A stretch of DNA of 64,000 bases from Gigantopelta aegis (taxonomy: Eukaryota; Mollusca; Gastropoda; Neomphalida; Peltospiridae): positions 8,815,822 to 8,879,821 of the forward strand of contig NC_054701.1 in the NCBI RefSeq assembly GCF_016097555.1, read 5' to 3'. Position numbers and translations under genes: made by a program. Shown here in pieces: positions 18,506-60,639 of this stretch. Each line of letters begins with the position of its first letter. Position 1 is the stretch's first letter. The notes under the pieces were generated by a model that saw nothing but the letters and a program-made list of their open reading frames with translations, ran no database searches and had not been told where the DNA came from.

Positions 18506-19630
18506 TTAATAGCTCATGGAAGAGTCAAAATTGGTGATGCTCTTTGGGAAGGTCTTCACAGAAGAGTACGTGCTGGTCATTGTCCCAGGTAAAGAGTAAG
18601 GTCTTTCGAAGAAGAAATCTGGGTCCACCTTGTAACCATTGCTCGCATTGCCCGATGCGTGCTTGGACACATCGTACTTGAGTCTCGACACGAGGTGGAT
18701 CTTGGGAATAAAAATACCCACAAGCATCAGCGTGGCACAGGCCAGGATGGCGATGCATATGGACGCATCAGTGTACTGGCTACTCAACACGAAGACCACG
18801 ATGAGCCACGCCACCCACACCACCACGCACAGCCAGCTACACGTGAGCAGCAGCTTGGCCTCTCCCATATTCTTGCGTTCGTTGCGAACGCCAATACCGT
18901 ACAAGGAGCACGTCACTATGAGAATCATGATGTAAACGAGGTACACTACGAACTCCTTCTTCTCGAAGGAGCACGCGAACATGGCGTCTAAGCCGATGGA
19001 TCGAGTGAGGAGCATGGGCTTGTTCTGAACCCAGTACTGGACACCCACGGCGATCTGCACCCCACTCACGAACAGCACCGACAGCATCTGATTGAGATTT
19101 GAGACCTCGCCTCCAAGGCCGATTAATCGATAATCTCTCAGGGAAGTCAGCTTCACAAGTATAGACGCGAAACACAGGGCGTAGCTGAAGCCTGGTGCGA
19201 AATACCTCAACCCGCAGACTCCTTCCGATGGGGTGAACGTGAAGGGGATCACAGACAGATACAGCAACATGACGCCAGCCAGGAGCATAAATCCCAGCCA
19301 CACGTGCCGTTTGGCGAGAGCTCCAGAGCAGACTTTGTAGAGGACGTATAGCATGAGCACAAACGAGATGAATGCCCCCGATGCTGCTATAGCCAGGATG
19401 ACGGTTGCCCACAGGACACCGTTGAACTGTCCTGACGAGTTGGAGAAGTGGGCAGGGTCGAGTACTTCTACTGCTGGTTCAGTGGTTGGCGGTGTTGTCT
19501 TGATGTTGAGACACATGCAGTCTTCGTAGCATTGGGAATACAGCGTTGATGGCAACACGTCCCCGTTGTTGTCGTAAAACCTCAACTTGTTAAAGTCCAG
19601 TTGCAGATGAAAATCATGCCATTCTCCTAT
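18506..19630 (-). CDS. receptor exon 7: cysteine stub, seven-helix domain, C-tail
   Basis: Last exon, 374 codons plus stop, entered at phase 0 after 'catttcag'. It opens with IGEWHDFH, the closing strand of flytrap 3, then a Pro-Ser...C-x3-C-x-C stub (residues 1337, 1341, 1343) in place of the full nine-cysteine domain, and a Thr/Pro-rich linker. Seven hydrophobic helices follow, the first at about 1375-1401. Class C hallmarks are the [13 protein letters not shown] loop 3/helix 6 region with VVWVAW, and FIPKIHLV in helix 7 (the F-x-PK motif). The cytosolic tail is short and Ser/Tyr-rich. Loop 3 is short, as is usual for the class. Confidence 0.93.
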   Translation of the reverse strand: MGEWHDFHLQLDFNKLRFYDNNGDVLPSTLYSQCYEDCMCLNIKTTPPTTEPAVEVLDPAHFSNSSGQFNGVLWATVILAIAASGAFISFVLMLYVLYKVCSGALAKRHVWLGFMLLAGVMLLYLSVIPFTFTPSEGVCGLRYFAPGFSYALCFASILVKLTSLRDYRLIGLGGEVSNLNQMLSVLFVSGVQIAVGVQYWVQNKPMLLTRSIGLDAMFACSFEKKEFVVYLVYIMILIVTCSLYGIGVRNERKNMGEAKLLLTCSWLCVVVWVAWLIVVFVLSSQYTDASICIAILACATLMLVGIFIPKIHLVSRLKYDVSKHASGNASNGYKVDPDFFFERPYSLPGTMTSTYSSVKTFPKSITNFDSSMSY

Positions 19631-22600
19631 CTGAAATGAAAGAAAAAAGATGACAATACACAACAGAACGAAAATAAACAACTCACAGTATCCGTACATG
19701 CACACACAAACGTATCTATGAACTTACCTACCTGCATGAATGTATGCATGCATATATACATACATACATATATTACATCCATTCATCCGTCCGTATGTCT
19801 GTTCGTACATACATACATACATACATACACTCATTCATGCATGCACACACATAAATGTACATTACATCAATTCATACATACATTGTACATATATTCAGAT
19901 TTTAAACATATTAAATAATATGTGATAAAACATTTCTTGTATGCTTTAGTTTGCATATTTATATTATTTAAATGTATAAATGGTCCTATGTCAAAGTTAA
20001 AACTACAATATTTCTTTGTTTTCACATTTATTTCTAACAAATAACTACAAATTAATCAATCACAAGCATAATTAACTCTAGAATAATAATTTTAAAAAGT
20101 CTTGCACTAGACGACAAGAGGGGTTTCCCGAATAATTTTTGGCTAAATACAGCATGGTCACCATTATTGTTTCTTTTGTTAGGTAAGCGTAGTGTATTGT
20201 ATATGTATGCATAAACCAGTTATGTCACTAGTTAATGCATGTCACGCACTCTACAAATTCTCTCTTAAAATGTTTTTCTACTAGTAATTGGAATTATTTG
20301 CTTGTAATGTTTTATAGGCTTATAGCTGAATATATAAACTTTACGTTTCAAAGCAAAACTTTATAAATATATTTGGTTGGAACCGCCATTTTTGCAACTT
20401 TGACAAGCTATTTATCAACTTAAAATCTTAAATAAAAAGTCATTTGATAGATAATATATCTATAGTATAGTGCACCTATTTATATATGTGTGTCTTATAA
20501 AATGATTATGTCTATATAATGTGTTGTTAGTAAATACAGAAAGATACCTTACCTTAACTGTACCGCGTGGTTGGTGACTCTTTATAACATACGAAGCATC
20601 AAGCCTGTTAGAACCTGCAAACCGGACAGTTTCTTGCTCAAACTCAAACCTAACACTTTTTATAACTGAGGGCAATGCGGGCACGCCCTCGTTTAGAAAC
20701 CTGGCACATAACCCCATGATACTGGGACACAATTCCATATATCGGTCATGGATAGAGTGCAAGATGAGGTCCACTCCTTTAATTATCTTTGCAGCAACTG
20801 TTGAAGGCTCATCCCGAGAATCATAAGCATTTGGACAACTTGCATCATACTTAGAGTTCACCCCTGGCAACTTGCACTGGAACCGCTCCTGCCAGTAATG
20901 CTGCCACCACGGATTGAGACCACTGTCAGTTATTTTAAAGGCGAGCGAGAACTCTTCAAAATGTTTACTGAATTTGCCTTTCTTGTCCAAGAGAATGGAT
21001 CCATAAGGAAAGTGTACATCAGATGTAGATCTCCAGTCGTCACTGGTCACACTCACTAGCCAAGGTCGCGGAAAACGAATGATACCATTGTGTTGAAACA
21101 ACTTCAGAGTGTCTGTTTTATGGGCAAGGACGACAACGGCCATTTTTGGTGAACTATTTAACTCCCGTGCAATGGTATTAAGAGAGCTTGTATTATAATG
21201 TTCGAAATAGATTGTTTTCAAAACACAAATGTTGCTACGAGCCGCAATTACGAATAATGAGTGCACTAACTGAACATGCCTTGTCGAATTTGTGGCCAGG
21301 ATGATTATATCTGTCCAGTTCAAGTGAAAGAGGACAGAAGATATTGCTTCTAATTCACCGGCAGCCTCTTCATTAAGAGTAGGCAGTTCATCTCCATCTG
21401 CATCTGTTGCCAGGACGATTTTTCCAATGTGCCTAATAGCTCTCCAGACATATTGGTTTACCCCTTCACCGCCATCAAGCACGTAGCCCATATTGCTGCT
21501 TGGATCCGGTGCCCACAATTCAGAGTTTGATAATGAGGTGGAACAGGATTCGAAGTTGCCAATGGACTGTACGGCGTGACTAGTATCAGAACAGGAATCG
21601 AACACCAGGCCGCCAACATTGACGGATGGAAGCAGGTATGGATAGCGGGACTGTGATGATTCTATGGCATACATGAATGCTTCCACGGCTCGATCAGAGC
21701 CGAGCATTCCCGACACAAAGCCGCACTTAAAGGATGTGAGACCTCGCTGGTGGATTGGGAAGACTCCACTGATTAGAATATCGCCCTGCAGATACAGCTT
21801 CTGGTCGTCTGATTTCCCCCGCGGTTTACATTGACGACATTTGGAACACCACCCACTGCACTGACTTGATGCAGGAAGAACTACTGATTTGTCGTGGATT
21901 ACTGTCACATCTCCGGTAGTGGACAATTCTCCAATCTGAAATAATCAAGTTAAAAATGGTGTATGTCATTATAAAACCTTAACTGGAACACACACAGCAA
22001 AGTGAAAATAATGACTTTGGATCAGGATTTATGTGTGGTCAATTTGGATATGACCTTTAGGGAGGCTGTATTTGGAAATGTTTGGGTGTGTTTGATATAT
22101 ATAAAATATTATCGACTAACAGACTTTTTAACAATTGTAATTACATATCAAATATATTTTTCTGCATAAAATATTAGTGGCTATATACCAAACGTGTTTC
22201 TGATCGTTCTAATATTTGTACTAGGTGACATTTCATTTTATTTTCTAAAATATAGTTTTTTTGTACATACGAAATTATTTGAAGACAAAATCCAGTTTGG
22301 GCTTCTTAGAAATATTAAGACGACTTAAAACACATTGAATATACAGACATTGATATTCTAAAGAAGAAAATATATTTAATATGTAAGTTTAATCGTAGGA
22401 ATATGTTATTAGTCGGAAACATCTTACAATGGAGCAAACTCAGGAATGTCCCTTTAACATCCCCAAATGGTCATATACAACATAGCTATCCCTTAATATA
22501 TCTGTGTAAACTATATGCTGTGATTGTACGGCAATTGCTTTTTAAGGGACAGATTACGTGTAACATTTCATTGCTGGAACATCACTATTCACATGGACCT

Positions 22601-25600
22601 TGCATCACTATGTGCTCAACAGAAGTTCAGTAGCAATAAACACATAATGAATGATGTATCAACAAATTTGAGGATTTTAAAATTATGATCTAATGGTCAT
22701 GGACATAGAAAAAGAAGAAGAGTATATTAACCATACAGTTACAGCATGTGGCAGCTGATGAATTACCAAACATGACTATCTCACCTGAGCCAGATATTGT
22801 CATATGTGTTAATACAATAGAAAGCGTTTCTTTCTGATTGTTATCTGGCACTGACATAGTCAAAGGGTCGGGACATGAAGACCATTGCAACCTAATCGCA
22901 CCCCAGGTTCTCACCACTGTATTATGTTTGTGTGTCGCCCCATGAAGTGTAAAACAGACACATAGACATAGTGTGTTCCCCACCCTCCTAATGTCAGTGA
23001 CCCGAATATAAAATCCTGGCTACGCCAGTGTTATTTGTTTAATTAATCAATTATTTATTAAATAATCTTTATGCTAATTTTACCTTCTGGACAACTAATT
23101 CACCATCTTTGAAGTCAATCCTGTTAATATAAAATGTGTCCTGTAGATCTTTTATGCCCGACAGCATCAGTGGTCGAACCTCGTCCTTTAAGGACTCAAA
23201 ATCAGTGAATGCTTTACACATTCTGCCTTGTCGAGGACATCTGTTCTTGTAGATAATGGCAAGACTAGATACTAGACTTTCCACAGCTTTATTCATAACT
23301 AATGTTAGTCGCGAGTCCAGGAGCTGTAGGATGTCAACAGTTGATCCATTATTAGTCTGAGGGTTTTGAAACTGCTCGTACCACGGGTTACCCGAAGAAG
23401 GGACGCCAGACCCAGCAGATGTAGCTGGTCTAGGCCATATGACTACCGCCTCGTCGATGATGTTCTCCAAGTTGTTAGTCTGAAGAATGCGAAGATGCCA
23501 AGAAAATATTAACACTTTGAGACCCAATTTTGGAACTGGTTTGTTTAAAAGATTGGTAAACATCTGCATTGTATCATGTTCGGTGGTAAGAAGCAGAAAT
23601 GTCCCTGCGTCTTCTTTTGCTTCATTCAAGGTAGACATGCTTTCCTCGAGCAGGTGTCCTGATGCGTTGTGCTTTAGCGTTATAACTCCACCTATACAAA
23701 TTCCATGTTCAGAAGATTTCATTTTAAACTGATCAGCTTTATTCTTTAGAAATTCAGTGTCAGAAACAATAAAATAGATGTACGTCCATTTGATTTCCTT
23801 TAGAGTTCTAATGACTGAATCTGTATAGTGGTCGTTGGTGGAGTTACCAAACGTTATCCCAGTGTCTGCAATAGTCATACTTAGCTTCGCCGTGTTCGAA
23901 ACGGTGTTAAAACCTGAAAAGGCATCTGTGTTAAAGTAAGCGACAGTCTTCGAGGGCTGAATAACGACAGCCCTGTCATCTGAGTTTTTGTAGTGGTACA
24001 AACAGTTCTCAATTTCGTGGTGTTTAGTGGAAAACCAGGTCTGGTCACCACACGAATCAAACACAACTCCACCAAACGAAATATTGTTAGGGAGAGTCAG
24101 ATTCTTCTGAGAGAGCATTTGGATTGCATTTGTGAAAGCCTGGGCGATTTTGAATCCTCCAACATTTGGCACAGCACATTTTCTACCTGGAGTTGAAGTG
24201 TGTATGGGAAAGACGCCGACAAGAAGTAGATCTGCATCGTTGAACATCACTCGTTCGTCTGAGGAAAAAGATGGCCGACACACCGTACACTCGAAACAGG
24301 CGTCTCCGCAGTGGCTGTTGTAGAATGCAGTTGGTATTGTCACGGGCGTCTCGATGTTTCCCATATCTATGGTCTAGCAGTAGGAACAAAAGAAAGAAAG
24401 ACTTAGTTGTGATGTGACAACTGTGATTATACTATTAAAGATGCAATCTCACCAACACATCCATAAACTAAAGCTTGTTTTGTTTAACGAAACCACTAGA
24501 GCACATCGATTTATTAATCATCGGCTATTTGATGTCAAACATTTTGTAATTTGTGACTGGTAGTCTTAGAGGAAACACGCAAGAAATCTTTTATATACAT
24601 TTGCTCCAGTCAGGACAGCATATATTACGACTTTTGATATATTAGTCGTGATGCACTGGTTGGGACGGAGCAATTCCTATCAGAAATTTGATCCACTGAG
24701 GTTGTTCGATCCTGCGACACAAGCACCTCAGTCGGGAACGGTACCGACCGAGTACTTTTTTTCAAATTTGATCAACTGCATTATTACGACATGCAAGCAT
24801 GTCGTTATTTGTTTCATTACCATATTTACATGAACTAAATATATTAGGATTAAATTATATTTGGAATCTGAGTAACATCCATATTAATGTATATCACATA
24901 ATAAAAGAAAGGATGTATGACGTATTCAAGCAACGATGCTACAGTACAATAACGGCATCTCCCAAGGATTTACTATACCAGCATTTAATAAGAGAATACA
25001 AATTACAAACATATTTAGCTACACCAACAGACTCTCGTAACTTAAAAGAAATAACAAAAATTAGAATCTGTGCACACAAATTAAATATTGAAACTGGCGG
25101 GTATATTAACATAGAGAGATCTCAAAGAACATGTAAGGTATGTAATTCTGATGCAATAGAAGATGAATTTCACTTCATTCTACAGTGCCCACAATATGAA
25201 ACTTTAAGACATAAGTTAATTAAACAATACTATTTTAAACATCCTAGTGTCTTCAAATTAATACAGCTTTTAACTTCTGAAAATAATAAGGAGATAAATA
25301 ACCTTGGAAAATATTTATTACAGGCGAATCGAAGTAGAGACCAGTTCTTACAAACACTATAACTAGTTATACATGGTTATTTATATATTATTATAAATAC
25401 CCATATACCCCATTAATATCAATAGTAGTTAACAATTCTGTACATTTATATTAAATTATATTATATTACCATATTGCTATACTATACTACATGCGATTTT
25501 AATTATAGCTTAACAATAACCTGTTTTAGTCACTCTCCACCTATGTACTGCACTATTGTATATATATTAATTTATATGTTCAATACTGTTTTTATGCCAT

Positions 25601-28470
25601 TAAGCTATAAAGCTTAACGCAATAAAGAACTTGAACTTGAACATAACCTAGATTGGTGATTTCAACCAAAGAATATTGAAGAATAAAATTTAAGACCAGA
25701 TGACATGTTCTAAATGTTTGTTAAATGGAACATATTCGAGACTGCAACTTTAATAAATAAAATTTAGCAAACAGTACATTCACGTCATGAACAGAAACTA
25801 CATATATCGCTATACATGGGTATGTATCAGTGATAGTAAATTACATCTTTCATTTGTAGATTTGCTTATCAACGTTAATGACGAAAACATGACATCGAGT
25901 AAATTACTGCATCAGACAATCGTTTCAGTGCGTAATGCGCTACTTTGTTACAAACTGATGGAGAAATATTAAATTATAGTCCAAAATGCTATACCTCGAG
26001 GACCATACCCAACACCAGACAATTTTCCAGTGAAATAGATGTTAAAAAATGCACTTTTTAATTCAAAATTGTGTGGAGTTTTTTTCTTCTTCTTTAGCTG
26101 AATACGACTTTTATTACTTTGTTCCATTAGTTACATTGCATTGGCTACTATATATTTTAAAATGAATCTAATTACCAGTGTGACTATTAACGTCAAGTTT
26201 ATATAAAAAAGAAAAACGTGCCCTAATATATTTTATCCTAAGTAATACGATGCAAATTCAGTGCAACCAGTAACATTATTTTTCACAACACAGGCTAATT
26301 TATTTAAACTACGAAGGACATTACCTTAGAAATTAGATATTCGCGTACATTATTATTTTATTTTACAATACTACAGTTGCAGTTAAAAAAATTTTTATTA
26401 AAATAATAAGTTAATAATAAAACAAATGTTAATATAAATAAAATTGCATGAAAATCGTTTTGAACATCCAGTTTTCTCAATCTATATTTGGGCAAGAATT
26501 TGAACCAGTGGTTTAACTTGGTGGCTTAGTGAAAATCACTAACCCTTGCATTTTTGTAAAACCCTAGATTATAAAATGCATACATTTAAAACAGCAAACG
26601 GATATAACAATATGTACCTCTGTTTGGTTTGCTGAACTCCGTGGGAATATCAATCTGAATGTCGGTCGTCTCTGGGCTATTCTGCGTCCATTGTACGTAA
26701 AAAATGACATTACATCATTAATAAATGTCAACGATGTCTTTGTACAGCCTGCGACGTCGCCCGAACAGTTCGCTTGTATTCTCTCCTTAGCAACTCTTAG
26801 AAGAAGGAACGTAGCGTCAGCCATGGCCAGGTGTTCATAATTAGTCTTCATCATTCTGAGACATTTTAAATGGATCTCAGAATTATTCACACCCATGTCT
26901 CGAAAACACTCGCTATCGGTTAATAAATAGCCACGCTGGACGTTCAGCGATATGTTGGTGTTTACAAGCTGATACAGGTATTCAGTCAACCCTTCCAACC
27001 TCGGGGTGTTCTCCACAAGAAAGATTACATCATCGCTCTGTTTCTGCAACAACGGCATCTCCGTTGAAACGACCAGAAGCGTTGATGACGTCTCCGGGAC
27101 AGAACGTATGAGAGAATCTCCGGTGAAAAGAAGAGCCGCCTTGGATTTGAAATCGGGGAACCCAGACGAAGACAGGTGATCGGTGTCTAGCTCGTGAGTG
27201 GAAGCAATGCACAGCGATCCTTCTTTTGTCATGTTAACAAATGTTTCCAGATCCGACCGGCCAATCTGCTGCTTCAGGCCTAATGCTGAAACATACGTCC
27301 AGTCCAAGAGCCCAGCCACTGCTATGGCCGCCTGTAAAACAAACTCAATCATATTATAATTTAGTACATTAAATTGCCAATAAATCTAAGCTTAATGTAT
27401 ATCTTTAACCTACATTGTTTCGTTCAGCCCAATAAAACAAACTGTAGTGGCTGTATCACAGATAAAGTAGTCCATATATTATGTTGTTTCTTGATGGAAT
27501 TCATCACACTATTACTATTTATATTTTTAATGACATTTTGATAATATGGTAATGAAAGCGATGCTTTGATTCAGTTTTGCTTAACATACTCTAATGTCTT
27601 TAGTTGTACAAAGGTGATTAATTTCAAGATCTAGACAATCGTCTGGTCTCTACATGAGGTTTTTAATACACAGAGTATCGATCAACTGCGTACTTTAAAT
27701 AGTGGAGGTTATCAAGTCAAGACGGCCGCCAGTATTTTGCGTAGCAATCAAACAAGTCTGGTGTGCGCAATACAAATTACAACCATAAAGACAACTGATC
27801 TGGTGTAACCCACAAGACGTACTATTTTTATGATGTGTAATTATTTCGACTATCTGGAACACAGAAAGTTTACGCTCAATGTATAGCCCATGTATTGATT
27901 ATAATTAGTCTAGACGTTCCTAGAATGTATGGATATTGTTAGCTGCACGTGTCTCCGACAGTATCATATCGCCACTTAATAACAGTTAGTCTCTCTTAAC
28001 TTTTTTTCGTGCTTATATCAAGCACGCTGTCCTGGGCACACACACCTCAGCTTTCTGGGCTGTCTGTCCAGGACAGTAAGTTAGTTATTAGTTGTTAGTG
28101 AGAGAGAAGATGGTGTAGTGGTCTTACATCTACCCACTGAGTCGTTAAAATTCGCAGGGTGGGAGCCCGTATCGGGCTGCGAACCCACTACTTACTAGCC
28201 AAGGGCGGTTTCACAGTTAGACTGACATCAATGATGTTCAGTTCTCACTTAATTTAATTCTGTGTTGCAATAATGATTTGACCAACAACAGCTCTTATGA
28301 CACTAAGATGATTGTCATTATACTGCATGTGGTGTGGTTTTAACCATTTCCTAATTCCTGATTTCTTACATACATTTTCCGATTTCCTACAAAAATATAG
28401 TAGACAATACTTGGAATATACATAATAAATTAATGCAGATGTCTTATTTGGTTCTGTGCGCTATATGTGT

Positions 28471-28557
<87 letters not shown>

Positions 28558-31500
28558 GAAGGCACAGAGCCAGACAGAGAGGTGTTCTTGTTGAAAATGA
28601 CATTTCACGGTGCTGGTGTGAAGAGGAAATTAGATGTTACTTCGTCTACACTGCCCCCGTCTTTTTTCGGTTCAATTATTCATCTAGCTTTCGGTTACCA
28701 TATACAATTCGATCTCCATTAACATTAGAATTTGAAACTATCATGGAAGAACAAATTGCAGCAGTGCAAATGTACTAAAAATGTGTCACGGTGATATTTT
28801 AAATGTTAATCGTTTTACAAAGTAGTAACACCCTTGAGAGATTTGCAATGCATTTGTCTTGTCCTTTCTGCACAGTTGTATGACGTGTATTGAATCGGTT
28901 GTTTCTAAAAATAGGTATAATTTTAGTAATGCAGCTATGGATCTTTTCCTTTATGCCGAATATTCCCTTGACATCGCAAGGTATCTAAACAACGGACCAG
29001 AAATAGCAACTGAAGTGTTTTTCACAGATGATCGAATCTTGAATGTCTCATAGATACAACAGTAGAAAGAGTTGCATTTTAGCACGGTTACGAAAATCTA
29101 AAGAAACGATATGACCTTGTCTCCAAGCTTTAGACTTTGTAATAGAAGACGTAATCAGCTTATCCAAAAAAGTAGTTTAGATCCCTAAATCACCTTCCAA
29201 AAATTTCAGTCCCTTGCCTTGACATAATTCAGAATTGTGTCAATATTATTTTAAAGGGTCTTTTTTAGATTTGCATGGACGTGCAAGATTGGTTGGAAAA
29301 TATGTTATCTATTGTTATTTGTTACATCCTATTAACGTTTTACGTAAGTTTGTAAAGGGGTGCAGACATGTTGGGAATTTTCCATTTTCTGAAATTTCAA
29401 ATGGGTCAGAAATGGTGTGAATTTTGGAAAGTTTTCAATTTTATACATCGATTAACTCTTTTGTTAACCATTAAAAATAGAAACCAGTAACATAATTAAC
29501 TCCAAACAAAAGCGTTTGCTTAAAAATGAAGGATGCTACTGATTGTTTAACTTTAATTGTATTTTAATTATTGCTTAAGTATCGAAAACTCTCACTGATT
29601 TTTCTCGGTGTTATGTTACTAAATATAATAAAACTTTACAAGAGTTAGTTGGTTTCACCTTTTTATAATCTAAAATGTGTAAAGTCCCTTTTATTTCCTG
29701 CAATGTGTCAATGCTACCGACCACTCGCTTACTCATACTCCTGTCGGAGGGTCCCATTGTTATTTTCCCACACTGTACGGGCAGCTAGTTGTGTCTGGCA
29801 CTAGTGCCACTTTACTCACCAAATGCCAAGACCAATCTAGGGTAGGGAAGCAGAAATGATGGGTGCATAATCAGCTTATTTACATCAAATAATGAGAAAT
29901 TATCGCTTTATGGATACTTATTCTGAAACCACTGGATAAAGCAGACACATCCTGCTACTTGCAAGATATGGCATGTGACGTCACCTACACGTGGACAGCT
30001 TAAATAAACAATAATAATGGAGGGGAGGGGGAAGTCTTAAATGTTTAATGAATTACAGGATAAAGGTAACCAGTTCATGACGTAGGCCAAACAGGGACTC
30101 CTTATTCTTATCTACATTCAATAAAGCCGATATCCTACGTCACTAACTAGTTATTCTCTATTGGAAGTGATTGTTGACACAAATTAAATTAGTTTAAACA
30201 ATTTTGAAAGCTAAATAAAATGTTATTAGTTAATTGTCACAGTAGTTGTCATTTAAATGATTTATCTATGTTGATACCAAAAAAATGAAGCTGAAAGAAA
30301 GAATTATATTGTGCAAAAAACTAAATGTTTCTGAATTATTGAAATATATCCAGTATCCTAATTCATTAATATTTTAATGTTTATTATCAATATTTTAATG
30401 TTTTTTATAACTTCAGTGCTTCCGTAAAGGTCCCCCAAATTCCCGTAAATTCCTATAATTTGTCAGTGTACATTTTCCGCTCCTAACGTTTACCGGGCGG
30501 CAGTACACATTGATAAAGATTTGAAATACGGGAGCTATAAATATAAATAATGATTAATACTAAAGCAATTATCATATACACGTGTGTCATGTCCCCTTCT
30601 ATTAAATAAGCCCTATATCCGCCCCTGTTAGGTGTATACGACCTACAAGAGATTTAACCGTGGCCTAGCTCTCTGTCTATTCGCAAAACGTAAACTCACT
30701 GCAGAAGTTCAAGTAATTGGTTACTCAAACTAAAAGAAAATAAGTCGTAAGCTAAAGACAATCGGACGTAATTTCAAATGCATGCGCTAACATAGTTGTA
30801 ATAATCCCCTATCTATTTGGCCTCCAGTCTAAACATTTGAACTGGCAGCCAGATGTGGTGTCCATCTTGAGTTGTCTACACCGTATATGCTGTAAAGATG
30901 TATATATATGTACACTGTACCTCGGCTCTAGTATCCGTGTGTAGAGGGAAGGAAAGACAACTCTCGAATTCTGTCCATCGACATGTTGGCGAATCCCTGT
31001 CCGTGAGTTGCACGTGCATCACATCCATATAACGTAAAATATTATGAACTGCTGACGTCACTTCCGGCGAGGTATAGGTAATCACGCCTGAAAAACAAAA
31101 CATGATGAAATAACTTTAGCCAATCAATTTATACAAAAACACATATCTTTAGATTGTTATTACAATGTGTGCGCGTGTGTTCATGTGAGCTTTATATCAA
31201 TTACGTAATATGTATGTGTTTGCTGCTTTTTGTCGATTGATGTCTGTTTTTATGATTGTGTGTAATGTTTGGTGTGGATGTATAGAGATTTGTTTTATTC
31301 ATTTGCACCAGTTATGAACAAAATATGAAAATCAATATGTATCTTTAACGAAATAAATATAGCAAATATAACAGTAGTACATTATATTTTCATTACATAG
31401 TTTTAACGGTAGAAAAAGAACAACAACATCAACAATGCATTACAATATTGGTAACGGAAAAAAAGAGTAAAGTTTGTTTTATTTAACGACGTCGCTAGAG

Positions 31501-49471: not shown

Positions 49472-52400
49472 GGGGGGGTATCCCAGTAATAAAGAGCTAA
49501 CTTGATGCGCGGTCTGTCTAGGATTTTTCGTTCCAGTCAGTATACCATGACTGATATATCAAAGGCCGTGGGATGGTGCATATAAAAGATCCCTCGCTAC
49601 TATTGGAAAAGTGTACCGGGTTTCCTCTCTAAAACTATATGTCAAAATTACCAAATGCTTGACATCCAATAGCCGATGAGTAATAAATCAATGTGCTCTA
49701 GTGGTGTCGTTAAACAAAACAAACTTTCTAAGTGAAGTGTGAATGTAACTCACCTTTTCTCTTTTCCTGATTTCTAAGAAAGTGTTTTCCGTTAATTCTT
49801 ACCTGCAATAGATCTTGTCATGGTACTGTTAATTCTTACCTGCAACAGATCTTGTCATGGTACTGTTAATTCTTACCTGCAACAGATCGTCATGGTACTG
49901 TTAATTCTTACCTGCAACAGATCTTATCATGGTACTGTTAATTCTTACCTGCAATAGATCTTGTCATGGTACTGTTAATTCTTACCTGCAATAAATCTTG
50001 TCATGGTACTGTTAATTCTTACCTGCAATAGATCTTGTCATGGTACTGTTGACTAAATAGCCGCTTAGAATCTGGACCACTCGTTTTTCCGAACCGCACG
50101 TGTCATAGACAGTCAAACCTGAAGTGGAAGAAATCACGTTTATCAGTGGCCAATCCTAGTGAATACATGTACATGTACTTGTTTTATCGCGTACATATTG
50201 CTCGACTTTCACTAAGCCTATCTTATACAAAACAAATAATGAAAACTTTAAAATATATGTACGCAATAACACACACACACCGATAGACGAAGAAAATAGA
50301 GGTGGCAGTCCTCCTAGAGATAAAGATTTATAAAAGGTGCATGTTCTACTTTTTTAATAATTTGTATTCTGATTGTATGAGTTGACAAATGTGTTGGGGA
50401 TTTTGTTTTTGTTCTGGTTTCTTTGTTTTTTGTTTTCTTGTTTTTTCATTTACATGATACACAGGTATACACCACATAAACTGATAATACCATGGTTATT
50501 TCTGCATTGAAAAATGTAAACTGTGTTAAAACTGGGTTGGATCAGATTTATACCTCAAAGTGCTCCAGTAATTCAGAAATACTCGTATGTTCGTAGCTGA
50601 TTAAAATAGCATACACAGTGCATAAATGTATGATAATGTGGGAGGTTTTCGGGTATGGAAAGTGATAACACCGGGGTTTTGTTTAGGTTTCTACTGGAAA
50701 TTACTTATTTATTATTGGTTTTACTGGACTTGGAGGGGGGAATCTACTGAAAGAAAAACAGCGTAACATTGTCGGTTTTACGGGACTAGATGTGTGTATG
50801 ATGTTCAAGCCGTTTAAATAAATCTTCTAATGTAAATGGAAAACAAGATGTTTCTGAAATCTATAATAAATAAATACATGTGTATGCTTATTGAACTGGG
50901 TGTGCTACATTGAAAGTTGAACACATTTCTGTACACATAAATTCGCTTGAAGACTTATGTGTTAAAATATTCAGCTTGCTATGAGTGCATTTTCTAAACC
51001 ATGGAGCCGTGGGACATTTTAACACCTGGTCGGTGCAATGCTATTAATTTTTAACACCTGGCGGCTGGAAAGATATTCTTTTCCGTAATGTAGGTATTAC
51101 ATCCCTTCATATTCATATTATACGCTTAAAGCTACAAGGAGATTTATTATTTTATTGGTCAATTTTGAATGTGTTATATAATCTGTAAGCATAATATTAA
51201 AAACTGATTATCGATTCACTTTAAAGGGACATTCACGAGTTTGCTGCAATTTTTAAGATGTTATCGACTAACAGACTTTTTAACGATTGTAATTAAATAT
51301 TAAATATATTTTCTGCATCAAATATTATTGGCTGTATATTAAACGTGTTTCTGATCGTTCTAATATTTGTACTAGGTTAAATATCATCTTATTTCCTAAA
51401 ATATAGGTTTTTTCATACGTACAAAATTATTTGAAGACAAAATCCAGTTTGGGCTTCTTACAAATATTAAGACGACACATTGAATATACAGACACCGATA
51501 TTCTAAACAAGAAAATATAATTAATATGCAAGTTTAATCGTAGAAATATTTTATTAGTGGTAACATCTTATAATGCAGCAAAATCAGGAATGTCTCTTTA
51601 ATTGCATTGCTTAATAATTGTGGATACATGCCAGTTGACACTTTGTGGGGGTTTTAATATTACGGGTGTTTTGTTCTATTGTTTGTTTTTTTTTCAATAT
51701 ATTTGTTCTCTATCAATGGCTACATGAATGCGCAGAATGTTAAGATCCTTACATTTGCTAATTCGCGTATTTACCAGTTATTAGCTCATGGGCTTGAATA
51801 ATCGGACAATAAGATGTAAAAGAGATCTTGTAGAGGCACATATGTTAACAATTACTATGACTGTCTTACTTTTTTAAAAAAACACAGAAAAAACTTGTGG
51901 CGATATGAAAGAAGAGTCACGAGTGGTCTATATGTTGTGTTGTTGAGCACGACCAGTTCTATTAGTGTCGGTCACTACTGGAGATAATACAATGTGGAAA
52001 TGTTCCATCACAGAATCTGATGATCCTGCCCTCTTGTTGTTGGCAGTGGCACGTACGGGAGCCGTCCGGGTCACTGTGTTTGTTGGCTTAGTCGTGGTCA
52101 ACAAACTTACACTACCCTTTATCTTAAGCCAATTTTAAATCGGATTGCCATTCGGTGGGCCAGGCGAAATCTTCTCCAAACAGTCAAAGATGTCACACTT
52201 CCATGTCATCCATAGGTAGGGCTTCCTAGTTTTAACAATATGCTTCATACGGCGATAATTGATTTTTGACATGTCGGTATTGAATTTGTCAAAACAAATA
52301 GTCGAGATAATATTAATATGGTGTGAGACCAACAGTTTGGTGTCACGTGTTAAAACAGGTGTGTGAGGGTTGATTTATGGACGGAAGTGGGTATTAAAAA

Positions 52401-59696: not shown

Positions 59697-59732
<36 letters not shown>

Positions 59733-60639
59733 CAGCAGAACCAGTAGTAGTAGCAGCAGCAGTAGTAGTAGTAATTGTTGTTGTTGTTGTTGTTATAGCC
59801 TATAGTTCGTTTCATCCTACTACAAAAATGTTGGGGGTTTTGAGGGTTTGTTTGACTAAGAATGAATGAATGAATGAATGAATGTTTAACGACACCCCAG
59901 CACGAACAATACATCGGCTATTGGGTGTCAAACTATGGTAATGCAAATAAATAAAGTGATGATCAACATCAATATAAAAATTCAAGACTTAAACAAAAAC
60001 AGTGTAAAGAACTGTGCAAAAGCACAAATATCACAGAATTTTACGGATACTGAATTTTACTAAAAACTTCAATTTTGTGCTGTATTGGCCATTCTCAAAG
60101 AGAATGTTACACCCCTGCACCACAGTGAGGTTACAGCACACGCAGGGGGTGTTTGACTAAGAAGAAAAGTAAAATGTTTTGGAAATAAAACAATAGAATT
60201 TTTGTGTTCAATTTAGAAACCAATCGGCTCAAAAATAAATAACTTGTAGTAAATTCCATAGTATAAAAAACGCCATTCCTTGTGAGATGGACTATAGTAG
60301 TAATAATAATTTTATAAAAGAATTCCCTCTTTTTGTTACTTCTTCCACCCCACCCCCTTATTTTAATTTTGCAGACTTACCTATTTTTTCACCTGGATCC
60401 GAATTATTTGAAACTGTACTCCACTTCCACAATGCCGTTAAAGCCACGAACACTGTCTTGGGGCGAAAATCCGTGCACTTTGCATCCGAGGACGAATACG
60501 ACTTATGTATGTCGAGCAGACAAATGATTTGTACATCGCCATTCTGAGACAAAACAGGTTCATATCCATTGCATAATCCATGTTGATTAAAAAATGTCAG
60601 AAGTGTAAAGACAAACACGTTAAAACTTAGTGCTGACAT
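18506..60639 (-). CDS. class C GPCR with three tandem Venus-flytrap domains (7 exons)
   Basis: Predicted cell-surface receptor of 1677 residues, joined from exons 60639-60381, 50118-50023, 31087-30921, 27331-26618, 24373-23084, 21935-20553 and 19630-18506. All six introns are GT-AG with phases 1,1,0,0,0,0, and the join stays open throughout. Order: signal peptide (about 1-24), flytrap 1 (about 34-420), flytrap 2 (about 457-850), flytrap 3 (about 893-1312), a cysteine stub, seven helices (about 1375-1620) and a 55-residue tail. Each flytrap opens with a Gly-Asp/Asp-Ala...Phe-Pro-Ile-His style strand (weakest in flytrap 1). The closing strand of each flytrap (IGEL, IGEW type) is encoded at the start of the next exon, which shows the exons belong to one protein. 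Class C receptors sense small ligands through the flytrap and couple to G proteins; the usual form has one flytrap plus a nine-cysteine domain. The ligand is unknown. A chain of separate receptors is unlikely because no extra signal peptide or helix domain lies between modules. Confidence 0.85.
19741..19920. repeat. (ACAT/ATTC)n microsatellite in intron 6
   Basis: Impure CATA and TTCA tetranucleotide repeats inside the 922-bp intron 6 (19631-20552). The rest of the intron is AT-rich with no other feature. Confidence 0.8.
20553..21935 (-). CDS. receptor exon 6: third Venus-flytrap domain in one exon
   Basis: 461 codons, phase 0 on both sides, between 'atttcag' and 'AAG|gtaagg'. It begins with IGELSTTG, the closing strand of flytrap 2, then a C-x3-C-x2-C-x2-C knot (residues 868, 872, 875, 878), then the flytrap opening [12 protein letters not shown] and the GLVFDSCSD strand. 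[13 protein letters not shown] corresponds to the start of the second lobe (class C 'W-T-x-V' strand). The serine-rich amino-acid-binding loop of glutamate receptors is not recognisable here. With 1383 bp, skipping this exon would keep the frame. Confidence 0.9.
22108..22457. mobile_element. TTAA-ended MITE, left end lost (intron 5)
   Basis: Matches the complete copy at 51221-51601 over most of its length (shared blocks 'ttatcgactaacagac', 'acgtgtttctgatcgttc', 'aatccagtttgggcttctta') and ends with 'aggaatgtccctttaa'. The left terminal repeat is absent. It lies inside receptor intron 5 (21936-23083). Confidence 0.85.
22458..23083. other. rest of intron 5, nothing recognised
   Basis: Non-coding intron sequence between receptor exons 5 and 6; no repeat or coding signal stands out. 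Confidence 0.5.
23084..24373 (-). CDS. receptor exon 5: second Venus-flytrap domain in one exon
   Basis: 430 codons, phase 0 at both ends, between 'ctgctag' and 'AAG|gtaaaa'. It opens with TIDMGNIE (closing strand of flytrap 1), then C-x3-C-x2-C-x2-C (residues 434, 438, 441, 444), then the flytrap 2 start [10 protein letters not shown] and [22 protein letters not shown] marks the second lobe. The exon ends in VVQK, whose strand is completed by the next exon. An ATG four codons in is internal to the spliced frame and not a real start. Its length and layout parallel exon 6, so the two flytrap exons probably arose by exon duplication. Confidence 0.9.
24473..24745 (-). repeat. SINE copy in intron 4
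   Basis: Reverse-oriented SINE: tail ('tttaacgaaaccactagagcac', 'catcggctatttgatgtcaaac'), 'agaggaaacacgc', then degraded centre ('tagtcgtgatgcactggttggga') and a trace of the 'gtcgggaac' head. Moderately old. Confidence 0.75.
24795..25642 (+). mobile_element. LINE 3' end (non-LTR retrotransposon remnant)
   Basis: An open frame at 24799-25362 encodes the C-terminal part of a LINE reverse-transcriptase polyprotein. The end shows a CCHC-like finger, C-x2-C...[10 protein letters not shown], followed by [12 protein letters not shown] 280-bp 3' untranslated region follows, ending in AATAAA and the short repeat (cttgaa)n at about 25625-25640. The fragment is 5'-truncated and antisense to the receptor, inside intron 4 (24374-26617). 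No target duplication was found. Confidence 0.85.
25643..26617. other. rest of intron 4, nothing recognised
   Basis: AT-rich intron sequence; only chance open frames. Confidence 0.5.
26618..27331 (-). CDS. receptor exon 4: main part of first Venus-flytrap domain
   Basis: 238 codons, phase 0 to phase 0, between 'ttttacag' and 'GAG|gtacat'. It begins [18 protein letters not shown], the class C second-lobe strand with the conserved W-T-Y-V, and continues through the hinge and lobe 2 to the last strands ([12 protein letters not shown]). The closing strand lies in exon 5. This exon alone gives only half a flytrap; exons 1-3 supply lobe 1. Confidence 0.88.
28005..28205 (-). repeat. tRNA-derived SINE, third family
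   Basis: Shares with 34345-34574 and 58205-58480 the blocks 'cttatatc', 'cacgctgtcctgggcac', 'gggctgtctgtc', 'cccactgagtcgttaaaa' and 'cgggctgcgaaccc'. On the minus strand the last is a B-box-like 'gggttcgcagccc'. The head end is degraded here. Confidence 0.75.
28473..28552. repeat. (GA)n microsatellite
   Basis: 80 bp of uninterrupted GA repeat; the Arg-Glu-rich open frame across it is an artefact. Confidence 0.98.
30921..31087 (-). CDS. receptor exon 3: flytrap 1, lobe 1
   Basis: 167 bp, phase 1 in, phase 0 out, between 'tttttcag' and 'GAG|gtacag'. It encodes [20 protein letters not shown]..., the strand-helix corresponding to the class C 'G-x-x-S-S-x-V-x-x-A-V-x-x-L-L' element, and two nearby cysteines (TC and SC). 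The Gly codon is split with exon 2 and is restored exactly by the join. Confidence 0.85.
31459..31860 (-). mobile_element. full-length SINE with target duplication (intron 2)
   Basis: Flanked by 'atattggtaacgga' at 31445-31458 and 31861-31874. The head is ggcctcggtggcgtcgtg with B box 'ggttcggatcc', and the tail ends 'cgttaaataaaacaaac'. It is almost identical to the copy at 10707-11091, so both come from a young subfamily. Confidence 0.93.
32881..32904. repeat. poly-C run
   Basis: A 24-bp C homopolymer, preceded by AT-rich intron 2 sequence from 31875 with no other feature recognised. Confidence 0.95.
33342..33552 (-). repeat. old SINE copy
   Basis: Degenerate reverse-oriented SINE: 'actgctagaaaacactgatt', 'aatcagctataggatgtcaaat', 'ccattagtagcaaggagtctttcat' and 'ctagtcgtggggtactgattgggg' follow the standard order. 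Confidence 0.7.
33796..34317 (-). other. unidentified open frames, possible pseudogene
   Basis: On the minus strand a frame from 34317 reads [15 protein letters not shown] then stops after 37 codons. A neighbouring frame continues with [19 protein letters not shown], and a third at 34068-33796 gives 90 codons. The base composition is more GC-rich than the surrounding intron. I recognise no family. It may be a decayed host gene or transposon piece within receptor intron 2. Confidence 0.3.
34345..34574 (-). repeat. tRNA-derived SINE, third family
   Basis: Reverse-oriented copy with 'cttatatccaattcaggttcaagcac', 'acctacccattgagtcgttaaa' and the head end 'cggaggccggt'. The B box on the minus strand reads 'gggttcgcagcc'. 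Confidence 0.85.
34575..34790 (+). repeat. SINE tail half, abutting an oppositely oriented SINE
   Basis: Forward copy from 'catgactgggttatcaaaggcc' through 'gcatataaaagatccctt' to the tail 'gtgtcgttaaataaaacaaact'. It starts exactly where the reverse-oriented SINE at 34345-34574 ends, giving a head-to-head composite. Confidence 0.8.
34906..35219 (+). mobile_element. full-length SINE, second tail type, with 15-bp target duplication
   Basis: Flanked by 'cttcattgtatttat' at 34891-34905 and 35220-35234. The tRNA-like pol III promoter is plain: A box 'tagcccagtgg' (34918-34928) and B box 'ggatcgatccc' (34960-34970). The body continues through 'gcatataaaatatcctttgctgc' to the tail 'gttgagtgcgtcgttaaataaaac'. 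This is the best reference copy of this SINE in the window. Confidence 0.95.
35235..36072. other. intron 2 sequence, nothing recognised
   Basis: AT-rich, T-rich tracts near 35400-35520, no coding or repeat signal. Confidence 0.45.
36073..36282 (-). other. open frame downstream of the unknown membrane protein frame
   Basis: 69 codons overlapping the 3' end of the frame at 36279-36782. From its [19 protein letters not shown] stretch onward it looks more protein-like than the surrounding intron and could continue that frame after an intron or frameshift. No family recognised. Confidence 0.3.
36279..36782 (-). CDS. unidentified single-pass membrane protein frame (nested in intron 2)
   Basis: 167 codons from an ATG. 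A basic N-terminus ([17 protein letters not shown]) is followed by a strong hydrophobic segment (about residues 18-31) and then a mostly polar part with cysteines at about 43, 69, 93 and 111 and an NTT glycosylation site. This is the layout of a type II Golgi or membrane protein. I recognise no family. It is on the same strand as the receptor, so it would be a nested gene, an exon of one, or a decayed copy. The GC content is higher than in the intron around it. Confidence 0.35.
   Translation of the reverse strand: MRKIVMRNNAKLNEFRKVIIVVVVVLLTYNLTQFRDLKVVGSCLKISHRTPMSPPNSHPTYVRQPLKQCAEESSNKDIFFDFLSLKETVMQSCYRYYTFTNVRLQEENIPCWGNTTRLLPTDIDTDFLLFPAAAGSIVPLPRLTLSFTAPPSVCSVFPGRLQDSVTS
37125..37200 (+). 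repeat. SINE tail with (ATTC)n end
   Basis: 'acacccaatagccgatgtg' then 'gctggggtgtcgttaaacattcattcattcatt'. Other copies are at 37605-37672 (forward) and 59862-59945 (reverse). This is a third tail type ending in ATTC repeats. Confidence 0.75.
37605..37672 (+). repeat. SINE tail with (ATTC)n end
   Basis: Same tail as at 37125-37200 ('acacccaacagccgatgta', 'ctggggtgtcgttaaac', then ATTC repeats). The two copies are about 400 bp apart in the same orientation. Confidence 0.75.
37673..39784. other. intron 2 sequence, nothing recognised
   Basis: 2.1 kb with only short open frames and short (GTTT)n / (AAAC)n runs near 38560 and 39290. Confidence 0.5.
39796..40184 (-). mobile_element. chimeric full-length SINE with target duplication
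   Basis: Flanked by 'atttttaagga' at 39785-39795 and 40185-40195. The tail is the second type ('acgacgcactcaacac', 'tacggttatatggcgtc'), whereas the head is the one found with the first tail type at 10707 and 31459 ('ggcctcggtggcgtcgtgg', B box 'ggttcggatcc'). Near-intact, so young. Confidence 0.93.
40196..42562. other. intron 2 sequence, nothing recognised
   Basis: 2.4 kb with no coding-like frame or repeat end recognised. Confidence 0.5.
42744..45448 (-). mobile_element. degenerate 5'-truncated LINE with target duplication
   Basis: The copy is flanked by 'gtgacgtcacatttt' (42729-42743 and 45449-45463). On the minus strand, conceptual reading gives pieces of a reverse transcriptase: an NWRPITLLN-like block and a [11 protein letters not shown] block near 45100-45220, [12 protein letters not shown] and QYADDTSFI near 44870-44990, and then [23 protein letters not shown] at 44550-44600. 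The 3' untranslated region carries 'ccagggccccaaacctgg' and an AATAAA-type end. Several frame breaks are present, so it is inactive. The motif style suggests an L1/Tx1-like clade (tentative). The 2-kb part from 42790 to 44390 is 3'-end sequence with a (TG)n run. Confidence 0.85.
42884..42930. repeat. (TG)n microsatellite
   Basis: About 45 bp of pure TG repeat within the LINE 3' region. Confidence 0.97.
45705..47425. other. intron 2 sequence with a hammerhead-like motif
   Basis: No gene recognised. At 47197-47220 'ctgatga' and 'gaaa' flank a small GCC/GGC stem, the pattern of a hammerhead ribozyme core. An (AT)n run follows at about 47279-47306. Confidence 0.45.
47426..47804. repeat. (GT)n-rich microsatellite block
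   Basis: About 380 bp of GT repeat broken by many GC, AT and CT dinucleotides. Both strands show long open frames (Cys-Val on plus, Thr-His on minus) that are by-products of the repeat. Confidence 0.98.
47933..48139. repeat. (CATC)n microsatellite
   Basis: About 200 bp of CATC tetranucleotide repeat with some higher-order duplication ('cgtccgtgcatccatccat' occurs twice). The Ser-Ile-His-Pro open frames are artefacts. Confidence 0.97.
48241..48365. repeat. dispersed repeat, second copy
   Basis: Matches 8125-8265 in opposite orientation ('ctcctaggtgatgaccaggtc', 'atggaaatcgatta', 'tgacgtatag'). The short open frame over it is not conserved in the other copy, so it is not coding. Confidence 0.7.
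48442..49440. other. intron 2 sequence, nothing recognised
   Basis: No coding-like exon or repeat end seen. Confidence 0.5.
49441..49478. repeat. poly-G run
   Basis: 38 bp, almost pure G, directly upstream of a SINE. Confidence 0.97.
49479..49728 (+). repeat. SINE, head shortened
   Basis: Forward SINE from the tRNA-like 'cttgatgcgcggtct' through 'ggtgcatataaaagatccct' to the first-type tail 'ctctagtggtgtcgttaaacaaaac'. An internal deletion removes part of the head. Confidence 0.85.
49793..50056 (-). repeat. 37-bp minisatellite spanning the exon 2 splice donor
   Basis: Seven near-identical units, with donor positions near 49801, 49838, 49875, 49910, 49947, 49984 and 50021; one unit is 35 bp. 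On the minus strand each unit carries the end of exon 2 plus its 5' splice site (GCAG|gtaagaatt). Only the first (50022-50023) keeps the frame open. Confidence 0.95.
50023..50118 (-). CDS. receptor exon 2: flytrap 1, VYDTCGS strand
   Basis: 96 bp, phase 1 at both ends, between 'ccacttcag' and 'GCAG|gtaaga'. It encodes [20 protein letters not shown] and on to TRSIA, matching the class C 'G-x-x-x-x-D-T-C-x-S' strand and helix. The split glycine codons on both sides are restored by joining with exons 1 and 3. Too short for a long open frame, but identified by homology and phase. Confidence 0.85.
51221..51601. mobile_element. complete TTAA-ended MITE (intron 1)
   Basis: 381 bp with TTAA at both edges and about 28-bp inverted ends: 'ttaaagggacattcacgagt' at the left, and 'ttaaagagacattcctgatt' as the reverse complement of the right. 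It is the best-preserved member of the family also found at 10603, 12390, 22108 and 62430. The interior is non-coding. Confidence 0.9.
51602..53220. other. intron 1 sequence, nothing recognised
   Basis: AT-rich, with T- and G-rich tracts at 52850-52950; no coding signal. Confidence 0.5.
53221..53447 (+). repeat. SINE, head missing
   Basis: Forward SINE from 'tctcgttccaaccagtgcacc' to the first-type tail ending 'gttaaacaaaacaaac'. Confidence 0.88.
53741..55464 (-). mobile_element. 5'-truncated LINE with 14-bp target duplication (intron 1)
   Basis: Flanked by 'aaataaacgttaat' at 53727-53740 and 55465-55478, with a poly(A) tail (poly-T as shown) at 53741-53767. Minus-strand frames cover the C-terminal part of a LINE polyprotein: [21 protein letters not shown]...GGLKMID near 55300-55450, and a CCHC-like finger C-x2-C...[15 protein letters not shown] at about 54475-54560. 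A gap with stops separates the frames. The 3' untranslated region shares 'cagggccccaacc' with the LINE at 42744, so both belong to related families. Inactive. Confidence 0.9.
55641..55800. repeat. 40-bp minisatellite, 4 copies
   Basis: Four units of exactly 40 bp starting 'taactaatgactatagtata', with one base change in the third. Recent expansion. Confidence 0.95.
55891..55962. repeat. palindromic hairpin
   Basis: A perfect 17-bp inverted repeat ('gttaatcggtatttgtc' at 55904-55920 and its complement at 55934-55950) around a 13-bp loop. It extends outward imperfectly to 55891-55962. Possibly the end of a foldback transposon. Confidence 0.8.
56440..56807. repeat. 92-bp minisatellite, 4 copies
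   Basis: Units start at 56440, 56532, 56624 and 56716 and are nearly identical (begins 'ttttgcagctttgacatatt'). Because 92 is not a multiple of three, the overlapping minus-strand open frames cannot be one conserved protein repeat. Confidence 0.95.
57205..57509 (-). mobile_element. near full-length SINE, first tail type
   Basis: Reverse orientation. The head at 57509 has 'ctagctcagtggtaaagcg' (A box) and 'ggatcgatgccc' (B-box-like), and the tail at 57205 has 'gttttgtttaacgacatcac'. About 305 bp. Confidence 0.92.
58205..58480 (-). mobile_element. near full-length SINE, third family
   Basis: On the minus strand, 'ggcctcggtggcgtagtggtt' (A box region) and 'gggttcgtagccc' (B box) start the element. 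It ends with 'ggatataagcac' and an (ATGAA)n-like tail near 58200. Best copy of this family in the window. Confidence 0.9.
58875..59072 (+). repeat. SINE, tail missing
   Basis: Forward, from 'gatgcgcggt' and B box 'ggatcgatccc' through 'gcatataaaagacccctt' to 'tctctaagacta', where it stops. Confidence 0.85.
59696..59795. repeat. (AGT)n/(TTG)n microsatellite
   Basis: Trinucleotide AGT/AGC repeat followed by TTG repeat. The poly-Val and poly-Tyr open frames over it are artefacts. Confidence 0.96.
59862..59945 (-). repeat. SINE tail with (ATTC)n end
   Basis: Reverse copy of the tail seen at 37125 and 37605: AATG repeats, then 'tttaacgacaccccagcac' and 'catcggctattgggtgtcaaa'. Confidence 0.8.
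60381..60639 (-). CDS. receptor exon 1: signal peptide and start of flytrap 1
   Basis: 86 codons plus one base, from the ATG at 60639 to the consensus donor 'ATAG|gtaagt'. [17 protein letters not shown] is a plausible signal peptide with cleavage around residues 22-25. Then [14 protein letters not shown] (residue 55) and the WKWSTVSNN helix match the first strand and helix of a class C flytrap. Joining to exon 2 gives [13 protein letters not shown] without gap, so no exon is missing between them. The first strand departs from the FPIH consensus of the other two modules (LDIH). Confidence 0.85.

What the first reader, a model, noticed from the sequence alone, without database searches (positions are those of the whole stretch)
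18506..60639. Class C GPCR with three tandem Venus-flytrap domains
Seven exons with GT-AG borders and fully compatible phases join into a 1677-residue receptor with three ligand-binding flytrap domains ahead of one seven-helix domain. Known class C receptors (glutamate, GABA-B, calcium-sensing, taste) have one flytrap per chain and work as dimers. A triple design would give six flytraps per dimer and raises the question of how a distal flytrap signals through two others. The closing strand of each flytrap is encoded at the start of the following exon, so the modules cannot easily be separate genes. To my knowledge this arrangement is not standard, but I could not search for prior reports.
Basis: partly seen in the sequence, partly recalled or inferred. 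Interest (0 to 1): 0.88.

Follow-up and report, generated by a model that had tools for sequence, protein, structure and literature searches.

The report
Three-flytrap class C receptor in molluscs
A deep-sea snail carries a cell-surface receptor of the glutamate-receptor type whose single protein chain appears to bear three clam-shaped sensor domains instead of one; gene models of other molluscs share the design, so one receptor may read several chemical cues at once.

Summary
Confirmed at gene level: seven minus-strand exons with AG/GT borders and compatible phases encode 1677 aa with three ANF_receptor stretches and one 7tm_3 domain. The DNA is Gigantopelta aegis. Gene models covering 98-100% of the chain exist in six other mollusc species (6 of 10 hits), so chance joining is excluded. 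Dreissena and Mercenaria models lack the middle flytrap. Against: the public G. aegis model P0011 (845 aa) starts at exon 6 from an alternative first exon, without a hydrophobic leader; no transcript was available. The flytraps keep at most 2 of 5 amino-acid-site positions in 29 rows; the nine-cysteine domain is reduced to 3-4 cysteines. The 7TM separates from five mGluR rows. Likely origin: duplication of a symmetric phase-0 exon [closing strand + mini-Cys + flytrap]. A like border recurs in two loci of this genome with five flytrap units before one 7TM, and in a single-flytrap neighbour. Ten searches of open-access papers listed no earlier report. New variant of class C GPCR; ligand and coupling unknown.

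The parts
60381..60639 (-). Exon 1: ATG, hydrophobic leader, start of flytrap 1 lobe 1; ends in phase 1
   Evidence: leader hydropathy 2.11
50023..50118 (-). Exon 2: flytrap 1, '[10 protein letters not shown]' segment; phase 1 to phase 1
   Evidence: aligned with the Haliotis proteins in A1
30921..31087 (-). Exon 3: flytrap 1, '[14 protein letters not shown]' segment; ends in phase 0
26618..27331 (-). Exon 4: flytrap 1, second half; phase 0 to 0
   Evidence: the best ANF_receptor stretch of the joined protein, residues 80-223, reaches from exon 1 into exon 4
23084..24373 (-). Exon 5: closing strand of flytrap 1, mini-cysteine segment (C434, C438, C441, C444), flytrap 2; phase 0 to 0
   Evidence: homologous to exon 6, blastp 1.8e-16
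20553..21935 (-). Exon 6: closing strand of flytrap 2, mini-cysteine segment (C868, C872, C875, C878), flytrap 3; phase 0 to 0
18506..19630 (-). Exon 7: closing strand of flytrap 3, mini-cysteine segment (C1337, C1341, C1343), seven-helix domain, conserved cytoplasmic tail, stop
22856..22885 (-). Alternative first exon (10 codons) used by the public 845-aa model P0011, inside intron 5

Best explanation
The gene encodes a molluscan class C GPCR whose ectodomain is an array of three Venus flytraps, each ended by a short 3-4 cysteine segment in place of the nine-cysteine domain of mGluR/CaSR. SHOWN by sequence: one open chain of seven phase-compatible exons; the same layout in gene models of other molluscs; loss of most of the amino-acid site in all three flytraps; a class C 7TM that separates from the canonical mGluR rows. 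INFERRED: it arose when a symmetric phase-0 exon [closing strand + mini-Cys + flytrap body] was duplicated in tandem. INFERRED mechanism: the chain dimerises like other class C receptors; flytrap 3, next to the membrane and closest to mGluR, couples to the 7TM through the third mini-Cys segment; flytraps 1 and 2 are distal modules that bind other, non-amino-acid ligands or partner ectodomains and bias flytrap 3 through the short linkers, much as the two tandem flytraps of BvgS together set the state of its transmembrane helices. The slowly changing 7TM and tail and faster changing flytraps fit one fixed intracellular partner and shifting external cues (chemosensory or peptide recognition).
For: Exon chain and 1677 aa. 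Domains. Homologs covering 98-100% of the query: Haliotis rubra 40%, H. rufescens 40%, Patella caerulea 35%, Lottia gigantea 35%, Mytilus coruscus 29%, Saccostrea cucullata 28%. Pfam counts three ANF stretches (each at E up to 1) plus 7tm_3 in 5 of 6 homologs scanned, two in Biomphalaria; the table does not place every stretch. Profiles built without the protein tested (and without its close relative where there was one) find flytraps 1, 2, 3 in order in the window protein and in 7 of 8 near-full-length homologs; flytrap 1 of Biomphalaria is borderline (1e-4); the domain slices were cut from one alignment that held all of them. Exon 5 and exon 6 are homologous, 1.8e-16; profiles of flytraps 2 and 3 match at 1.4e-37. 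Exon 5 searched in the whole genome finds itself, exon 6 (9.6e-13), then two units of a five-flytrap locus (1.4e-4, 4.5e-4). At the two five-flytrap loci 9 of 9 unit or 7TM starts tested follow an AG at phase 0, and 8 of 9 open with V/I-G-x-[W/Y/F]; a single-flytrap neighbour has L-G-D-W there; one canonical mGluR (L001) reads through this point without an intron. Tail 77% and 7TM 64% identical to H. rubra against 32-39% for the flytraps. Model of flytrap 3 + 7TM: pLDDT 69, mGluR matches.
Against: P0011, the public G. aegis model, has only exons 6-7, so the annotation of this very gene does not join them. The homologs appear to be gene predictions (named uncharacterized, hypothetical or unnamed), not transcripts. 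No ligand, dimer, G protein or expression evidence. The flytrap 2 model is poor (pLDDT 56, pTM 0.43; TM 0.30 to mGluR2). The P0011 model matches full-length mGluRs only at TM 0.35-0.43 and rmsd 23-28, so the placing of flytrap 3 against the 7TM is not supported. Flytrap 1 matches the other two more weakly (3e-13, 3e-16). One unit start reads V-M-E-Y, the second single-flytrap neighbour reads R-F-V-W, and 2 of 10 unit ends tested have no clear donor.
Confidence: 0.65

Rival explanations
1. Two overlapping transcripts: a long three-flytrap chain and a short VFT3-7TM chain started from the exon in intron 5, the short form being an intracellular or poorly exported subunit.
For: P0011 joins 10 codons at 22885-22856 to exon 6. 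A 251-base stretch around them has only its own match in the genome, so it is not an obvious dispersed repeat, although the tool skips very common words.
Against: The highest hydropathy near the start of P0011 is 1.18, against 1.88-3.11 in ten homologs and 2.11 in the long model: no leader. Residues 11-56 of P0011 are the orphaned closing strand and mini-Cys of flytrap 2 and are modelled at pLDDT under 50, mostly near 30. Its donor reads GTCAGT.
Confidence: 0.2
2. VFT1-VFT2 is a separate secreted protein (a soluble decoy or binding protein) and the receptor proper is VFT3-7TM; gene finders fuse them.
For: Retaining intron 5 would stop the chain four codons after the donor of exon 5, giving a secreted two-flytrap protein. 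P0011 has the second half alone.
Against: Seven gene models of other species (P0001-P0005, P0007, P0008) join all three flytraps to the 7TM. Each half would be left with a broken flytrap 2, whose closing strand lies in exon 6. The Dreissena and Mercenaria models join VFT1 directly to VFT3-7TM, though the Mercenaria record is marked low quality.
Confidence: 0.08
3. An ordinary amino-acid receptor: one of the three flytraps binds an amino acid and the others are scaffolds.
For: Nearest solved relatives of flytrap 3 and the 7TM are mGluR3 and mGluR2.
Against: At most 2 of 5 backbone-binding positions are kept in any of 29 flytrap rows, while the G. aegis mGluR flytrap L031 keeps 5 of 5. The stretch holding some of these positions is shortened or rebuilt in flytraps 2 and 3, so the alignment there is uncertain.
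Confidence: 0.12

Closest known systems
Metabotropic glutamate receptors (mGluR1-8)
   Same: Flytrap fold, closing strand, then Cys segment, then 7tm_3; best solved-structure matches by sequence and fold
   Different: One flytrap, full nine-Cys domain and intact amino-acid site in mGluRs; the 7TM of this gene lies across a 100/100 branch from five mGluR rows
GABA-B receptors
   Same: A flytrap joined to a class C 7TM without the nine-Cys domain (PMC12716839, passages)
   Different: One flytrap per subunit (recalled); 7TM similarity only E 0.41 to GABA-B1
BvgS-type sensor kinase with tandem flytraps (PMC4352136, abstract and outline)
   Same: Tandem flytraps on one chain, membrane-distal and membrane-proximal ones with different conformations
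   Different: Bacterial sensor kinase with periplasmic flytraps; no comparison was run
Five-flytrap loci C3:10.90-10.92 and 10.94-10.96 Mb of the same genome
   Same: Same kind of unit and phase-0 border, short Cys segment, one terminal 7TM
   Different: Five units; four of the eight units aligned keep 4 or 5 of 5 amino-acid positions; separate 7TM branch
Venus kinase receptors (PMC3703292, search listing only)
   Same: Invertebrate receptors with a class C type flytrap
   Different: Tyrosine kinase instead of 7TM; one flytrap module in the listing's description

Membership tests
Class C (family 3) GPCR | 7tm_3 seven-helix domain | tested here: met
   3.1e-27, residues 1377-1613
Class C (family 3) GPCR | N-terminal flytrap ectodomain | tested here: met
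Class C (family 3) GPCR | Dimer | not testable with these tools
   Needs an experiment
mGluR/CaSR/T1R group | Nine-cysteine domain (NCD3G) between flytrap and 7TM | tested here: not met
   No NCD3G hit in the joined protein at E up to 1; 4, 4 and 3 cysteines; the G. aegis mGluR L001 shows nine, counted by eye
mGluR | Amino-acid backbone residues (S165, T188, D208, Y236, D318 in mGluR1 numbering; numbers and roles recalled) | tested here: not met
   Window flytraps keep 0, 1 and 1 of 5; G. aegis mGluR flytrap L031 keeps 5 of 5
mGluR | 7TM inside the mGluR branch | tested here: not met
   Five mGluR rows (four G. aegis, one nematode) form one side of a 100/100 branch; the nine two- and three-flytrap rows form another, 100/99; midpoint root, no vertebrate, CaSR or GABA-B row
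GABA-B receptor | 7TM of GABA-B type | tested here: inconclusive
   GABA-B1 at E 0.41, behind mGluRs and CaSR; not in the tree
Three-flytrap molluscan receptor family (proposed here) | Three flytraps plus 7TM on one chain in other species | tested here: met
   Seven of eight near-full-length homologs by profile, Biomphalaria borderline; gene models, not transcripts

The most novel reading that the evidence does not exclude
Molluscs have evolved flytrap-array class C GPCRs: duplication or loss of a symmetric phase-0 exon adds or removes whole ligand-binding modules on one chain, giving receptors with two (Dreissena, Mercenaria), three (the other molluscs seen) and five flytraps (two G. aegis loci). 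In the five-flytrap chains intact amino-acid sites (5 of 5 positions in units F1B and F2E) sit beside units that lost them, so a single receptor could combine amino-acid sensing with other cues and act as a coincidence detector; in-frame exon skipping would tune the number of sensors.
Probability: 0.5. Interest if true: 0.87.

Novelty: new variant of a known kind. Interest (0 to 1): 0.78.

Why it matters
The class C receptors described in the papers seen, and those I recall, carry at most one flytrap per chain. A conserved family with three, and candidate relatives with five, gives a natural experiment on how a ligand-binding clamshell far from the membrane can signal through others, and shows a simple genetic route (a symmetric exon) for adding sensor modules to a GPCR. 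It also marks a molluscan receptor family, annotated as 'uncharacterized' or 'metabotropic glutamate receptor', that by its binding residues is unlikely to sense glutamate.

Tried and rejected
Rejected: chance joining of unrelated frames (six homologs cover 98-100% of the chain). Set aside: the open frame at 36815-36279 as an exon of this gene; the chain closes without it and I did not search it. Rejected: filing the protein as an mGluR (three features tested and not met).

Papers: ten searches in an open-access library; no listed title or abstract start reports a class C GPCR with more than one flytrap. Lists were cut (20 of 35; 15 of 22; 5 of 5,888); subscription papers and preprints are not held. 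Seen as passages: PMC12716839, PMC6307864, PMC4302439, PMC9138782; abstract and outline: PMC4352136; the rest as listings.

Full report
WHAT IS THERE. On the minus strand seven exons (60639-60381, 50118-50023, 31087-30921, 27331-26618, 24373-23084, 21935-20553, 19630-18506) join with AG acceptors, GT donors and cumulative phases 1,1,0,0,0,0 into one 1677-residue chain. Pfam finds ANF_receptor (4.2e-21, three stretches at E up to 1 each) and 7tm_3 (3.1e-27). Exon 6 and exon 7 match mGluRs of known structure at 7.7e-27 and 9.6e-17; exon 5 only at 6e-5.

WHERE IT COMES FROM. A public record identical to exons 6-7 over 835 residues is from Gigantopelta aegis, on a contig of 96,789,575 bases; contig C3, which holds the window, has that length. 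G. aegis is a peltospirid gastropod.

IS IT REAL. The joined chain was searched against 5.8 billion proteins: 10 hits among 5142 candidates. Six align over 98-100% of it: P0001 Haliotis rubra, P0002 H. rufescens, P0003 Patella caerulea, P0004 Lottia gigantea, P0005 Mytilus coruscus, P0007 Saccostrea cucullata. P0008 (species not named, 1663 aa, 74%) and P0009 Biomphalaria pfeifferi (1596 aa, 48%) have similar length; P0006 Mytilus edulis (1401 aa, 74%) lacks the start; P0010 Dreissena (1263 aa) covers 50%. The alignment runs through exons 2 and 3. With profiles built without the protein tested (and its close relative, where there was one), flytraps 1, 2 and 3 are found in order in the window protein and in 7 of 8 near-full-length homologs; in Biomphalaria flytrap 1 is borderline (E 1e-4). 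Pfam counts three ANF stretches in 5 of 6 homologs scanned and two in Biomphalaria. The Dreissena and Mercenaria models have flytrap 1 followed by flytrap 3; an exon missed by the gene finder is not excluded. The records look like predictions, not transcripts.

EVIDENCE AGAINST ONE CHAIN. The public G. aegis model P0011 begins with ten codons at 22885-22856 in intron 5 and continues with exon 6. It lacks a hydrophobic start (1.18, against 1.88-3.11 in ten homologs and 2.11 in the long model), begins inside the closing strand of flytrap 2, and that piece is unordered in the model (residues 1-56 under pLDDT 50). I read it as a split annotation, with a real short isoform as the rival. A 251-base stretch around the alternative exon has no second copy found in the genome.

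LIGAND SITE. Aligned with the G. aegis mGluR flytrap (L031), the five positions that hold an amino-acid backbone (numbers and roles recalled; Arg78 and Lys409 as glutamate determinants from passages of PMC6307864) are kept 0, 1 and 1 of 5 in window flytraps 1-3, and at most 2 of 5 in any of 29 flytrap rows (9 flytrap 1, 10 flytrap 2, 10 flytrap 3); L031 keeps 5 of 5. The region around some of them is rebuilt in flytraps 2 and 3, so the alignment there is uncertain. Hence an amino acid is an unlikely ligand. Identity to Haliotis rubra is 64% in the 7TM and 77% in the tail, against 32%, 35% and 39% in flytraps 1-3; between the two Haliotis species 95% and 98% against 82%, 86% and 90%. Fast ectodomain, fixed cytoplasmic face.

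ORIGIN. Exon 5 and exon 6 are homologous (blastp 1.8e-16); profiles of flytraps 2 and 3 match at 1.4e-37, flytrap 1 matches them at 3.1e-13 and 3.1e-16, and the three match the single mGluR sequence at 5.8e-14, 5.5e-20 and 2.1e-25 (the last three are profile to one sequence, so not on an equal footing). Exon 5 searched against the whole genome finds itself, exon 6 (9.6e-13) and two units of the locus at C3:10.94 Mb (1.4e-4, 4.5e-4). The 7TM finds itself, then the same locus (7.5e-19), then an mGluR-like exon (5.4e-16). In an 18-row 7TM tree the nine two- and three-flytrap rows form one branch (100/99), the five mGluR rows another (100/100), two five-flytrap and two single-flytrap rows lie between; one single-flytrap row is partial, and there are no vertebrate, CaSR or GABA-B rows.

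A LARGER FAMILY. At C3:10,904,501-10,923,716 and 10,939,001-10,963,690 the genome search and the reading frames show five flytrap units in a row before one 7tm_3 exon. Eight of the ten units were scanned with Pfam and all eight give ANF_receptor (4.1e-16 to 6.3e-46); the other two are ANF hits (8.8e-13; 5.1e-13 and 2.4e-11). The first unit of each locus is split over several exons and was read only in part. Nine unit or 7TM starts at the two loci were tested: 9 of 9 follow an AG at phase 0 and 8 of 9 open with V/I-G-x-[WYF], one with V-M-E-Y; the start of the fourth unit of the first locus was not found. One single-flytrap neighbour (10.98 Mb) has the border at L-G-D-W, the other (10.99 Mb) reads R-F-V-W; the mGluR L001 needs no intron there. 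Ends, chosen by eye: 8 of 10 have a plausible GT donor in phase; one reads GTGCCC and one has no GT. Units F1B and F2E keep 5 of 5 amino-acid positions, F1D and F2D 4, F2B and F2C 2, F1C and F1E 1; the single-flytrap neighbours keep 3 each. These gene models are mine and have no cross-species or RNA check.

HOW IT MOST LIKELY WORKS. Inferred: dimeric class C receptor; flytrap 3 drives the 7TM; flytraps 1 and 2 add binding surfaces for non-amino-acid ligands and bias flytrap 3. In BvgS tandem flytraps with different conformations strain the transmembrane helices together (PMC4352136 abstract). My odds: about 0.4 for this mechanism, above 0.9 for the three-flytrap architecture at the level of the gene; 0.65 is given for the whole statement.

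NOVELTY. Ten searches of an open-access library (three lists cut short) listed no class C GPCR with more than one flytrap; a 2025 account draws one ANF domain for mGluR, CaSR, T1R and GABA-B (PMC12716839 passages). New variant of a known kind.

Noticed in passing
G000 C3:10904501-10923716 and 10939001-10963690 (L061, L041, L054, L038, L062, L013; L063, L050, L051, L064, L046, L036, L010): Two loci with five consecutive flytrap units ahead of one 7tm_3 exon, about 2 Mb from the window; four of the eight units aligned keep 4 or 5 of 5 amino-acid-site positions.
   Followed up: partly
G000 C3:10977454-10981462 and 10992081-10996963 (L056, L028, L047, L025): Single-flytrap receptors beside the five-flytrap loci, with short cysteine segments, one with a like phase-0 border.
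   Followed up: partly
window 49940-50060: The end of exon 2 with its splice donor is present three times in tandem (about 37 bases per copy); read by eye, use of the later donors would bring in a stop.
   Followed up: no
window 23069-23084: Retention of intron 5 would end the chain after four more codons, giving a secreted two-flytrap protein.
   Followed up: no
window 4014-5213 and 8984-10099, minus strand: Two long open frames with a galactosyltransferase domain (PF01762, 1.5e-47 and 9.7e-50) downstream of the receptor.
   Followed up: no
window 44396-45454, 54184-55549 (minus), 24772-25362 (plus): Frames resembling parts of non-LTR retrotransposons (motifs recalled, no search) inside introns 2, 1 and 4.
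   Followed up: no
G000 contigs C611, C873, C782, C1747, C2802 (L005, L007, L034, L022, L039, L006, L017, L030): Small contigs of 31-35% G+C with class C receptor hits, many interrupted by stops, against 42-46% in the three chromosome loci measured; possibly another eukaryote in the assembly.
   Followed up: no
window 18506-18680, minus strand; homologs P0001-P0010: The cytoplasmic tail ('[15 protein letters not shown]...FDSS.SY' type) is as well conserved as the 7TM or better, suggesting a fixed intracellular partner.
   Followed up: no
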